From NCBI RefSeq assembly GCF_025717065.2, contig NZ_JAOVZO020000011.1:1-64000 (forward strand): a stretch of DNA of 64,000 bases, given 5' to 3'. Source of the stretch: Tahibacter soli. GTDB lineage: Bacteria > Pseudomonadota > Gammaproteobacteria > Xanthomonadales > Rhodanobacteraceae. The position numbers and the translations under genes are program-made. Of the stretch, positions 29,563-36,906 are shown piece by piece (within the stretch, counting starts at the first letter, position 1; every line of letters starts with the position of its first letter). Below the pieces are notes generated by a model. That model was not told the DNA's origin and made no database searches. It worked only from the letters and a program-made list of their open reading frames with translations.

Positions 29563-29978
29563 CCGGTTCCCGACTTGTGTGCCAGCCCGCGCGGGCGTTG
29601 CCGGCCATGTGACTTGACTGCGCCACGCGACATGGCCTGGCGAAAACCGAGGTATGGCTTGCGGCGCCCTCGCGCGTCACGCCGGCAGCGCGTTCGCGTC
29701 GTACTGCCGCTCGGCGGTATCGGCGTGATCACGTCGATCAGCACGCACTGGCGCAACTGCTGTCGGCCGCGTTCGATCGCGCGGCGCTGGCGATCGAAGC
29801 CGGCGTCAATGCGCGGCAGGTGCGCGAGGCGATGGTGTGGTTGTTGCGGCGGGTGTTGCCGGGGAATGTGGGCAAGACGGCGGCGAAGAAATCGCGGCGG
29901 TGGTTGATACCTATTAAAAAATTAACTTTTCAAAGTAAAGCGTTTCGATACTTTCCTGGCCTCGCCGGACCATCGAAC
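29563..29978. other. Stretch without a credible gene
   Basis: About 415 bases. A short in-frame peptide on the plus strand around 29,730-29,915 (HALAQLLSAAFDRAALAIEA, then NARQVREAMVWLLRRVLPG) looks protein-like but has no start or upstream domain; it may be the remnant of a gene. An inverted repeat GGCCATGT/ACATGGCC brackets about 29,603-29,640. Nothing else was recognised. Confidence 0.5.
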
Positions 29979-30107
29979 GTCGCCCCCTCATCCCAGCCTT
30001 CTCCCCCAACGCGGTTGGGGGAGAAGGAGCCGAGGATTCCGGCGTTGCGCCGCTTTGGCCCTCTCCTCCAAGCTTGCTTGGGGGAGAGGGTGGGGTGAGG
30101 GGGCGAC
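29979..30107. repeat. Mosaic intergenic repeat, copy C
   Basis: Full copy: GTCGCCCC boundary, hairpin CCTTCTCCCCCAACGCG...GGGGGAGAAGG, spacer with GGATTCCGGCGTTGCGCCGC, hairpin CCCTCTCC...GGGGGAGAGGG, GGGGGCGAC boundary. A further conserved tail (CGGTTTTCGCCGATGCGGG...CCGCAAAACCCGCTA) runs to about 30,187, then the element repeats as copy D. Confidence 0.9.
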
Positions 30108-30193
30108 GTCGACGCGCTCGTCGAGGATCGGTTTTCGCCGATGCGGGTGTGCCTGCATCCGCAATATCCGTACCGCAAAACCCGCTAGCCGCG

Positions 30194-30392
30194 CTCATCC
30201 CAGCCTTCTCCCCCAACGCGGTTGGGGGAGAAGGAACCGAGGATTCCGGCGCTGCGCCGCTTTGGCCCTCTCCCCCAAGCTCGCTTGGGGGAGAGGGTGG
30301 GGTGAGGGGGCGACGCCGACGATCTCGTCGAGGCACGGTTTTCGCCGATGCGGGTGCGCCCGCACCCGCAACATCCGTACCGCAAAACCCGC
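30194..30392. repeat. Mosaic intergenic repeat, copy D (tandem with C)
   Basis: Second full copy, including the conserved tail, in direct orientation about 210 bases after copy C and almost identical to it. The tandem pair lies between the low-GC cassette region and the HNH nuclease gene, whose stop codon falls at the end of the tail. Confidence 0.9.
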
Positions 30393-30760
30393 TACCCCCG
30401 CTTCTTGAGCATATCCGCCAACCCCGCAAACGGATTCGACGTCGCCGGCTTCACCTCGTCGTCGAGCCCCATCGAATTGCCGGCTTCGAGCTGCCGCTGG
30501 TGCTCGTTGTCGTGGCAGTACAGGCAGAGCAGTTCCCAGTTGGAACCGTCGGCCGGATTGTCGCCGTGGTTGTGGTTGCGATGGTGCACCGTCAGCTGGC
30601 TCAGGTTGCTGCGGTCGAATTCGCGACCGCACCGGCCGCATACCCACGGATACAGCTTGAGCGCCTGCTCGCGGTAGCCGCTCTGGCGCGCTTCGCTGTC
30701 GCGGCGCGCCTGCGCGACGATCGCGTCGAGTTTTTTCGTGTCGGGTGTCTTCGCTGCCAT
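30392..30760 (-). CDS. YajD-type HNH nuclease
   Basis: A 122-residue HNH endonuclease-fold protein. The zinc-binding cysteine pairs CGRCGREF and CLYCHDNEH frame the HNH core LTVHHRNHNHGDNPADGSNW. Size and order of motifs match the YajD family. YajD proteins are widespread; their DNA target and role are not settled. The ATG at 30,760 begins MAAKTPDTKKLDAIVAQARR, the normal N terminus for the family. The gene stands alone next to the tandem repeats. Confidence 0.88.
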   Translation of the reverse strand: MAAKTPDTKKLDAIVAQARRDSEARQSGYREQALKLYPWVCGRCGREFDRSNLSQLTVHHRNHNHGDNPADGSNWELLCLYCHDNEHQRQLEAGNSMGLDDEVKPATSNPFAGLADMLKKRG

Positions 30761-35400: not shown

Positions 35401-36720
35401 TCAGTTCCAGTCGATGCGCGCGTACAGCGCGACGAGCTTGCCCGCGCGCGCCGGATTGATCGCCTGCGCATGCGCCAGATGGCCGCGTAGCCACGCGCGG
35501 AAATCGGCGCGTCCGTCGCGATTCTGCGACGCGGGACCGTGCCGCACGCAGTTCGCGAGGATCGCCTTCAGCCGGTCGTAGTCGCGCCGCGCGAGATTCG
35601 CATGGCGGTTGACCACGACGCCGGTCACCGTCTGTGCATGCTGCGCGCCCATCACGAGCGTCTTGCGCGGATTGATCGTGAAGCCGCACTCGGCCGCGAC
35701 GACGGCGGCCGTGCGCGCGCAGCGCGACGCGGCGGCGCGCGACCAGCGCGGATGCGAGAACGTCAGGTCGTCGGCATAGCGCGAATACGTCGCGCCGAAC
35801 GTCGTCGCGAGCGCGGCGAGCCGCACGTCGAGCGCATAGGCGACGAGATTGGCGAGCGCGGGCGACGTCGGCGCGCCTTGCGGCAAATGCGGCATACGCA
35901 ACAACTGGCGTTGTTCCCACGACGGTGCGCCGTGCGGCGCGGCTGCGATCACTGGCGTCGGCACGCGATTGGTGCACAACGCGGCGAGCAGGGCCGCGAC
36001 GCGCGCGTCGTAGCCGAGCAGCGCGAACACGCCGCGCACGCGCGGGCGCGTGATGCGGCAGAAGAACTGCGACAGGTCGAGCCGCACCACCCACGCGGCG
36101 CCGGTGTGCAGGCGCGCGTGTCCGATCGCGCCGCGTCCGCGCACGAAGCCCTGCGCGGCGGCGTGCACGGGAACGTGCCGCAGCAGCGCCTGGTGGATGA
36201 GTCGCTGCGCGTCGCGCAGGCGGGGCTTCGGCATTTCGATCAGCCGGTCCGGGCCGTAGTCGCGTGCGAGCCAGCGATAGCGGTAGTGGCGCTGCGGCCC
36301 TTCGGCGCGCCGCGCTTCCTGCGACCATTCGTCGGCGAGCCAGACGAGTTCGCCGGCGTCGAGTTCGAGCCGGTCGGCGAGTTCGGCGTCGGTCGTGATG
36401 ACGGGCAGGCCGGGTACGTCGAGGCTCGGCGGTCCGACATCGGCAACGGCGGTGCGCGGCACCGGAATCTCGCCGCGCGCGATGCCGTCGCGCACGAGCG
36501 CGTCGCGATGCAGGCGATCGGTCAGCGTGTCGACGTCGAGCGCGGCGGCCTGCGCGGCGTCGTAGCGGTCGACGAGTGCGCGCGCCAGATCGGCCAGCCA
36601 GTGCGGCGCGGGCCGAAAACTCGCGACGAAGCGGCGCGCGAGCGCGACGGCGTTCCAGGGCCCGGCGAGCGCGGCGATGGCGAGGTGGCGGGCGACGACG
36701 CGCGGGTTCGGACTACGCAT
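35401..36720 (-). CDS. Retron-type reverse transcriptase
   Basis: A 439-residue reverse transcriptase. Motifs in order: HYRYRWLARD and RLIEMPKPRLRDAQRLI (residues about 145-175), motif A RLDLSQFF with D215, LPQGAPTSPALANL (279-292), the catalytic YSRYADDLTFS with YADD at 315-318, FTINPRKT, and the retron-specific VTGVVVN (365-371). The N-terminal extension of about 140 residues is like that of myxobacterial retron RTs. It should copy the msd part of the RNA at 36,744-36,906 into multicopy single-stranded DNA branched from an internal G. The ATG at 36,720 is 23 bases past the a2 repeat. No effector is adjacent. Codon use matches the neighbours. Confidence 0.88.
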   Translation of the reverse strand: MRSPNPRVVARHLAIAALAGPWNAVALARRFVASFRPAPHWLADLARALVDRYDAAQAAALDVDTLTDRLHRDALVRDGIARGEIPVPRTAVADVGPPSLDVPGLPVITTDAELADRLELDAGELVWLADEWSQEARRAEGPQRHYRYRWLARDYGPDRLIEMPKPRLRDAQRLIHQALLRHVPVHAAAQGFVRGRGAIGHARLHTGAAWVVRLDLSQFFCRITRPRVRGVFALLGYDARVAALLAALCTNRVPTPVIAAAPHGAPSWEQRQLLRMPHLPQGAPTSPALANLVAYALDVRLAALATTFGATYSRYADDLTFSHPRWSRAAASRCARTAAVVAAECGFTINPRKTLVMGAQHAQTVTGVVVNRHANLARRDYDRLKAILANCVRHGPASQNRDGRADFRAWLRGHLAHAQAINPARAGKLVALYARIDWN

Positions 36721-36743
36721 TGAACGAGCCTTGCGAATTCGGG

Positions 36744-36906
36744 GCGACCGCACCGCTTCCACCTGCTGGCGATGCGTCGACCGCCGTGCGCGCAGCGCAC
36801 ATGCGTCGATGCCGTGCAATGCCGAAGAAGCGTGCTACCGCGGGGTAACCCCGCAGCGTTCGATGCGCCTGCGCGTAGCGAACGAAGACTGGAAGCGGGC
36901 GGTCGC
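36744..36906 (-). ncRNA. Retron msr-msd RNA (predicted)
   Basis: A 163-nt segment directly upstream of the reverse transcriptase, bounded by an inverted repeat: a1 (36,890-36,906) and a2 (36,744-36,761) pair over 17 bp with a single one-base bulge (a1 reads GCGACCGCCCGCTTCCA on the minus strand). The base right after a1 is G (minus-strand base at 36,889), in the place of a branching guanosine. Inside are an msr stem (36,879-36,884 with 36,857-36,862), a strong hairpin 36,840-36,854 (GCGGGG/CCCCGC), and an msd-side hairpin 36,778-36,808 with GTGCGC/GCGCAC. Order a1-msr-msd-a2-RT is canonical. Exact msr/msd boundary and branch site are inferred. Confidence 0.72.

What the first reader, a model, noticed from the sequence alone, without database searches (positions are those of the whole stretch)
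35401..36906. Stand-alone retron with a readable msr-msd RNA
The reverse transcriptase has the retron hallmarks YADD and VTGVVVN, and the 163 bases directly upstream are bounded by a 17-bp a1/a2 inverted repeat with one bulge, with a G immediately after a1. That is the geometry of a retron RNA, and it was found without reference to any model. The long N-terminal extension and the absence of an adjacent effector resemble myxobacterial retrons, an uncommon type in gammaproteobacteria. Retrons with known defence roles normally carry an effector, so what this one does is open.
Basis: partly seen in the sequence, partly recalled or inferred. Interest (0 to 1): 0.85.

Follow-up and report, generated by a model that had tools for sequence, protein, structure and literature searches.

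The report
Stand-alone retron with conserved RNA
The window holds what looks like a real retron, a bacterial reverse transcriptase with its own folded template RNA, from a widespread family with no obvious partner gene, so what its small DNA product would do is still unknown.

Summary
A 439-aa reverse transcriptase (RT; 36720-35401, minus strand) follows a 163-nt RNA (36906-36744) closed by a 17-bp a1/a2 stem with one bulge; a G follows a1. The stem alone is weak evidence (15 of 1000 shuffles score as high). Comparison makes the case: 28 related RNAs share four covarying helices, and a model from 26 relatives, window left out, finds it at E 5.5e-11. The RNA precedes 77 of 80 related RTs, in one case on the opposite strand. 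The RT matches PADLOC's RT_other/RT_outgroup retrons and its family forms a clade beside, not within, three XIII-like RTs of one myxobacterial genome. No partner gene common to the family was found. The N-terminal ~105 residues keep their length but no strongly conserved residue. The family is rare in the host's order (7 of 299) yet single-copy in 44 of 65 genomes of Burkholderia. A new member of a known, uncharacterised, stand-alone retron group. msDNA and function are untested; structure prediction never ran.

The parts
36890..36906 (-). a1 arm (17 nt) of the retron RNA
   Evidence: pairs with 36744-36761; covarying helix 1
36889..36889 (-). G directly after a1, putative branching guanosine (2'-5' priming; inferred)
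   Evidence: position equivalent to the G of (C)AA|GC in many relatives; published rule for the priming G in PMC6868368 (passages)
36838..36856 (-). msr hairpin CUGCGGGG-UUA-CCCCGCGG, the best paired element of the RNA family
   Evidence: helix 2, 99.1% of cells paired in 28 RNAs
36774..36812 (-). putative msd stem-loop: outer stem GCAUCGAC/GUCGACGC (one A-C mismatch) and inner stem GUGCGC/GCGCAC
   Evidence: helices 3 and 4, covarying in 28 RNAs; exact msr/msd border not determined
36744..36761 (-). a2 arm, one bulged T
36744..36906 (-). whole msr-msd RNA, 163 nt from a1 to a2
   Evidence: leave-window-out covariance model R2: 69.3 bits, E 5.5e-11; R1 98.4 bits (window was a seed); the only match reported in the genome (which scored 150 of 10,144 first-look candidates)
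35401..36720 (-). retron reverse transcriptase, 439 aa (RT body about residues 105-439)
   Evidence: PADLOC RT_other 2.4e-136 over residues 4-439, RT_outgroup 3.6e-129; RVT_1 9.6e-21; only RVT_1 match in the genome
36409..36720 (-). N-terminal ~104 residues, no known domain
   Evidence: no Pfam family at E 0.01 in the window member, no PDB sequence match better than E 0.12, length kept (median 108 in 69 rows) but 0 of 100 columns at 80% identity

Best explanation
It is a genuine retron of the group that PADLOC calls RT_other/RT_outgroup, encoded as one RNA plus one protein. Shown here by comparison: the RNA, its four helices, its place just before the RT gene, and the RT's retron kinship. Inferred from well-studied retrons: the RT binds the msr part (the GGGG-UUA-CCCC hairpin is the likely handle); the G after a1 primes through its 2'-OH; the region upstream of a2 is copied into a single-stranded DNA (roughly 65-80 nt, my estimate) that stays joined to the msr as msDNA. 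Inferred with less support: because no effector common to the family was found nearby and the faster-changing N-terminal domain has no strongly conserved residue, that domain is probably a docking or sensing module which links the RT-msDNA particle to a partner encoded elsewhere, most likely in phage defence (I give defence about 0.5 and a non-defence cell role about 0.35). The confidence below is for the identity as a retron of this group with its RNA, not for the function.
For: RT: full-length match to the retron models RT_other/RT_outgroup; the 46 rows that I took as the family are one clade, SH-aLRT 96, beside XIII-like retron RTs. RNA: 32 predicted pairs, 27 with changes on both sides; 91.1% of cells paired, covariation score 0.508 against 0.154 shuffled and at most 0.108 slid, 0 of 500 shuffles as high; leave-window-out model finds it at E 5.5e-11; found at E up to 0.01 in 77 of 80 related loci, 51 of the 54 not used to build the model, one of them (L066) on the opposite strand; no hit at 0.01 in 11 loci (10 places, L105 and L109 being the same) whose RTs lie outside the family or are unassigned: L105, L107-L110, L128-L133. 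Stand-alone: among 671 flanking ORFs of 89 loci and the window the largest cluster covers 9 loci, all Burkholderia; of 133 nearest neighbours, the 25 of 51 PADLOC families shown at 1e-8 are RT models (2 members, presumably pieces of the broken RTs of L054 and L085) and PDC-M21B (2 members); Pfam gives a mixed set. Maintenance: one match in each of 44 of 65 Burkholderia genomes; dN/dS of the RT body 0.10-0.31 and of the N-terminus 0.23-0.81 in 55 pairs of 11 Burkholderia loci.
Against: No msDNA was seen; that needs an experiment. The window's RNA departs from consensus: CCA|GUC where most of the aligned relatives have CAA|GC, and an A-C mismatch in the outer msd stem. The a1/a2 stem alone is not unusual here. 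Region X reads HARLH at 201 where the recalled retron motif is NAxxH. Two RTs with 40-43% identity to the window, L010 and L104, give no significant RNA hit, so the RNA does not follow the RT everywhere. The defence role rests on analogy; a single-copy, partnerless gene in two thirds of Burkholderia species genomes argues rather for a steady cell role. In the host's own family only 1 of 37 genomes has a strong match. No structure of the N-terminal domain was obtained.
Confidence: 0.82

Rival explanations
1. A retron that once had a neighbouring effector and lost it; the RT and RNA are a relic.
For: Sporadic in the host's family (1 of 37) and order (7 of 299); the window RNA is less canonical than most. 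Two relatives have interrupted RT frames (L054, L085).
Against: No partner common to the family was found, so loss in this host need not be invoked; the window frame is open and all four helices can form; RT body under purifying selection in relatives.
Confidence: 0.1
2. A domesticated, non-defence retron: the msDNA-RT particle has a cell role (for example binding a repair, replication or nucleoid protein), kept by vertical descent as proposed for myxobacterial retrons.
For: One match in each of 44 of 65 Burkholderia genomes; a shared downstream ORF cluster, H-NS-like where Pfam was run (L042; 7 of 133 neighbours), in 9 of 12 loci named Burkholderia, one of which (L019) has no downstream DNA; RT tree partly follows phyla and classes; myxobacterial retrons are described as vertically inherited in PMC6868368 (passages); RT GC 0.73 with GC3 0.88, like its neighbours.
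Against: Absent from nearly all of the host's family that was searched; the retron functions shown so far are, as I recall, mostly anti-phage; the N-terminus changes faster than the RT body in most pairs, as conflict genes often do. Vertical descent was not tested against a species tree.
Confidence: 0.35
3. A single-gene defence retron in which the N-terminal domain itself is the toxin.
For: Single-gene retrons exist (PADLOC RT-Toprim I-C, RT-Protease XI, RT-TIR XII); the N-terminal extension is the family's only extra part.
Against: 0 of 100 N-terminal columns reach 80% identity against 112 of 335 in the RT body; no convincing match to a known family.
Confidence: 0.12
4. Not a retron: another RT class (DRT, group II-like) next to a chance inverted repeat.
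For: The repeat alone is within chance for this window; weak matches to group II (42.5 bits) and Drt2 (34.1 bits) models.
Against: In the same library retron models score 144-165 bits, though below their cut-offs; PADLOC retron models reach 454 bits; covariation and the leave-out search.
Confidence: 0.02

Closest known systems
PADLOC RT_other / RT_outgroup retron RTs
   Same: Best and full-length match including the N-terminal part (residues 4-439); relatives L019, L092, L064 and L005 give the same ranking.
   Different: A collecting name, not a described system; in the word searches (listings) I found no paper that assigns it a partner or function.
Type XIII retrons and the 485-aa myxobacterial RT (size of Mx162 RT, recalled)
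   Same: Nearest named type by RT score (4.6e-86, residues 101-436 only); also an N-terminal extension; sister group in the tree.
   Different: Separate clade; N-terminus of L108 not convincingly alignable; no SWIM-like neighbour (one beside L107, E 0.0012, just under Pfam's cut-off); no R1 RNA.
Single-gene fused retrons (types I-C Toprim, XI protease, XII TIR)
   Same: One protein plus RNA.
   Different: Those carry a recognisable effector domain; here none was found.
Lone retron RTs Retron-Bth1 and Retron-Sda1 (PMC12548924, passages seen)
   Same: Retron RTs without the usual effector.
   Different: Single cases disrupted by intervening genes; here a family found in several phyla has no common partner.

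Membership tests
Retron (general) | Retron-class RT with YADD and region Y VTG | tested here: met
Retron (general) | Region X NAxxH (motif recalled) | tested here: inconclusive
   window has HARLH at 201-205; A202 invariant in 5 rows, H205 in 72 rows; the N is absent in the window
Retron (general) | msr-msd RNA upstream, closed by a1/a2, G after a1 | tested here: met
Retron (general) | RT-dependent msDNA with 2'-5' branch | not testable with these tools
   needs an experiment
Retron (general) | Associated effector gene or fused effector domain | tested here: not met
   a review notes retrons that seem to lack proximal effector genes (PMC8867640, passages), so not required for membership
PADLOC RT_other/RT_outgroup | Best full-length model match | tested here: met
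Type XIII | Best match RT_XIII | tested here: not met
   287.7 bits against 453.7 for RT_other
Type XIII | WH-SWIM and ARM partner genes (recalled from PADLOC names) | tested here: not met
   nearest window genes tested: NIPSNAP, DUF6622, a sub-threshold SnoaL-like ORF, a TonB receptor, a 654-aa ORF without Pfam match
Myxobacterial 485-aa (Mx162-size) retron | Groups with those RTs | tested here: not met
   sister clade; identity of L108 with Mx162 itself rests on size, not on a sequence comparison
Rfam RNA families | Match to any family at gathering score | tested here: not met
PADLOC msr-msd covariance models | Match to a published retron RNA model | not testable with these tools
   such models exist (PMC9252829, passages) but are not held here

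The most novel reading that the evidence does not exclude
This is one member of an undescribed retron type: a partnerless, one-gene retron with its own RNA family (GGGG-UUA-CCCC msr hairpin, about 165 nt) and an adaptor-like N-terminal domain, found in seven phyla by the labels and kept as a single copy in two thirds of Burkholderia species genomes, whose msDNA acts through a protein encoded elsewhere or in a role other than phage defence.
Probability: 0.35. Interest if true: 0.7.

Novelty: new member of a known kind. Interest (0 to 1): 0.5.

Why it matters
Retron function is best understood where an effector sits beside the RT. A large family with a strongly conserved RNA, no common partner gene and steady single-copy presence in a well-studied genus makes the question 'what does msDNA do without an effector' testable. 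The RNA model built here gives exact places to look for msDNA in many soil and water bacteria, and supplies new RT-RNA pairs of possible use for making DNA in cells.

Tried and rejected
A permissive stem search returned long spurious helices in GC-rich DNA and was replaced by a strict one. Rfam gave nothing at gathering score and only sub-threshold noise. EAD2 as the N-terminal domain: 1 of 36 members at E 0.008, next to other unrelated single matches at 0.011-0.33, and no copy over the cut-off in the genome. A second copy of the N-terminal domain in the genome: the best other hit, E 7e-4, lies in a 605-aa ORF that I recognise from memory as DUF1800-like; taken as noise. Empty site: the two flanks gave only short scattered DNA matches in the other genomes of the genus (8 searched, own included), so none could be shown. 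Myxobacterial kinship: rejected. Host class: the best-ranked 16S matches among plasmid records are 87.7% Methylomagnum and 86-87% mostly Burkholderiales; compatible with a gammaproteobacterium in the wide sense, not settled. Structure prediction with 69 relatives (A5): the queue was full at each try, so no fold search was made. Mestre 2020, the FEMS 2021 review and the 2024 retron census are not in the library; what I say of types I-XIII beyond call outputs is recalled.

Full report
What is there. On the minus strand, a 439-aa RT reads from ATG 36720 to 35401. A NIPSNAP gene and a 654-aa ORF without Pfam match lie on one side; DUF6622, a sub-threshold SnoaL-like ORF and a TonB receptor on the other. 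It is the only RVT_1 match in the 6.65-Mb genome. PADLOC puts it with retron RTs: RT_other 453.7 bits over residues 4-439, RT_outgroup 429.6, RT_XIII 287.7 over residues 101-436 only. NCBIfam gives three retron models first (144-165 bits) and group II and Drt2 models far behind, none at its cut-off. The best PDB sequence matches are retron RTs such as Ec86.

The RNA as a single sequence. a1 (36906-36890) and a2 (36761-36744) pair over 17 bp with one bulged T, and G36889 follows a1. Taken alone this is not remarkable in 68% GC DNA: 15 of 1000 shuffles of the upstream 400 nt and 31 of 318 half-overlapping tiles of the window, its own included, reach the same score; the fold has z -2.0, 7 of 200 shuffles as good.

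The RNA in relatives. Upstream of many RTs (not counted) a strict stem search showed the same layout: a1 ending in (C)AA followed by G(C), often a GGGG-UUA-CCCC hairpin some 30-47 nt on, and a2 before the start codon. I printed 32 clear cases picked by eye and aligned 28 of them, the window included; L021, L029, L042 and L067 were left out as near copies. RNAalifold gives 32 pairs, 27 with compensatory change. Counted separately, 91.1% of cells pair; the covariation score is 0.508 against 0.154 in shuffles and at most 0.108 when slid; all ten counted a1/a2 pairs change on both sides in some sequence. Cases were picked for having the a1/a2 stem, and the structure was derived from the same alignment, so the counts lean towards it; helices 3 and 4 were not used in picking. 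A model from 26 relatives without the window (A6; L058 was dropped too, because its a1 had aligned badly in A2) finds the window RNA at 69.3 bits, E 5.5e-11, next-best E 0.16. Model R1 finds the RNA in 77 of the 80 loci at E up to 0.01, 51 of the 54 that were not seeds. The misses are L045, and L068 and L087, which hold little or no upstream DNA. Three of the 77 hits are partial (L033, L034, L055); L066's lies on the strand opposite the RT; L078's lies 466 nt before the start. Of the more distant relatives from the host's order, L003-L006 have a hit at 0.01, L010 does not (L004 and L006 read on the minus strand, as their RTs do). Of 20 sources, only the family members L134 and L017 pass 0.01; L104, a 40% relative, reaches E 0.2; loci of other RT types do not pass.

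Kinship. In a tree of 54 RTs (quick method, SH-aLRT only, rooted on five other retron RTs) the 46 rows that I took as the family are one side of a branch (96), next to three RTs from one myxobacterial genome (96). Those three, one of 485 aa and one beside a SWIM-like gene, score best with RT_XIII. The window RT joins Burkholderiales RTs with weak support (85) on a long branch (1.07); its best identity is 46%. Three of the five outgroup rows have long branches.

Partners. Clustering 671 flanking ORFs of 89 loci and the window found no cluster common to the family. The largest are lineage-bound: a downstream ORF in nine Burkholderia loci (H-NS-like where Pfam was run) and a 241-294-aa protein directly downstream in eight Planctomycetota loci, without a Pfam family at its cut-off in the three tested. 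Of 133 nearest neighbours (up to two per locus, window excluded, ORFs of at least 90 aa within 1.5 kb and filtered by codon-position GC), PADLOC at 1e-8 lists RT models (2 members) and PDC-M21B (2 members) among the 25 of 51 families shown. Pfam shows H-NS 7, PFIN 4, response regulators 3 and otherwise one or two members each among the 25 of 115 families shown. ORFs were called mechanically in GC-rich DNA, and L004, L006 and L010 were held in the other orientation, so small or divergent effectors could be missed.

N-terminal domain. About 108 residues precede the RT body (middle half 104-112, range 72-147, 69 rows). None of 100 columns reaches 80% identity, against 112 of 335 in the RT body. 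A weak pattern (A..LA.A.LAG....L..R....LG....W...LA) runs through 36 members. Pfam and PDB profile searches find nothing convincing. In 55 pairs of 11 Burkholderia loci dN/dS is 0.23-0.81 there and 0.10-0.31 in the RT body; one pair (L035-L046) is reversed, as is the Massilia pair L022-L026, and pairs between genera are too far apart to use. A domain of constant length, fast change and no strongly conserved residue suggests binding rather than catalysis; this is inference.

Distribution. Host family f1: 1 of 37 genomes with a strong match, two others only at about E 4e-6. Host order: 7 of 299 at 1e-30, the window included. Genus of L030's genome (Burkholderia): 44 of 65 genomes at 1e-40, one match each, three of the 44 partial or more distant; completeness of these genomes was not told. 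No plasmid record exceeds 60% identity (78 with a match, 3 covering 80%), and no phage record covers 80%. So the element looks steadily kept in Burkholderia and sporadic in the host's lineage, with host-like codon GC there. Phylum labels are seven: Pseudomonadota, Planctomycetota, Myxococcota, Actinomycetota, Acidobacteriota, Verrucomicrobiota, Bdellovibrionota; many are metagenome bins.

Mechanism. The msr/msd border and DNA length are estimates. Retrons without a nearby effector are acknowledged in print (PMC8867640, passages and one section) and lone retron RTs were reported in 2025 (PMC12548924, passages). PMC8934634 and PMC9252829 were seen as passages. In the word searches I found no paper describing this RNA family or its spread in Burkholderia, but the main classification paper is not held, so it may be described there.

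Verdict. Real, correctly read in position, and a retron by RT and RNA; a new member of a known but uncharacterised group. The interest lies in the family rather than in this copy.

Noticed in passing
L066:4756-4926 (-): In a Solirubrobacterales MAG the retron RNA sits just upstream of the RT but on the opposite strand. Since a1 and a2 are inverted repeats, an inversion between them could flip the RNA; an assembly fault is possible.
   Followed up: partly
L045, L064, L072, L073, L075, L082, L084, L090 (10-251 nt downstream of the RT): Eight Planctomycetota loci share a 241-294-aa protein, hydrophobic-looking by eye, directly downstream of the RT, with no Pfam family at its cut-off in the three tested; a possible lineage-specific partner.
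   Followed up: partly
L014, L016, L021, L030, L035, L042, L046, L057, L083 downstream of the RT: A shared downstream ORF cluster in nine Burkholderia loci, H-NS-like in L042, which suggests a conserved neighbourhood.
   Followed up: partly
L054 and L085, RT gene: The RT reading frame is interrupted although the RNA is found; decay or sequencing error, not examined.
   Followed up: no
L102, L107-L110 (one myxobacterial genome, G061): One myxobacterial MAG has five RT matches (one weak, L110), including a 485-aa one, one after a SWIM-like gene and one of the family described here.
   Followed up: partly
window 29820-30429: Overlapping ORFs on both strands with a repeated PHPTLSPK...GGEG peptide pattern; the tile at 30000 has the strongest inverted-repeat score of the window (68.5), so a dispersed or tandem repeat is likely.
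   Followed up: no
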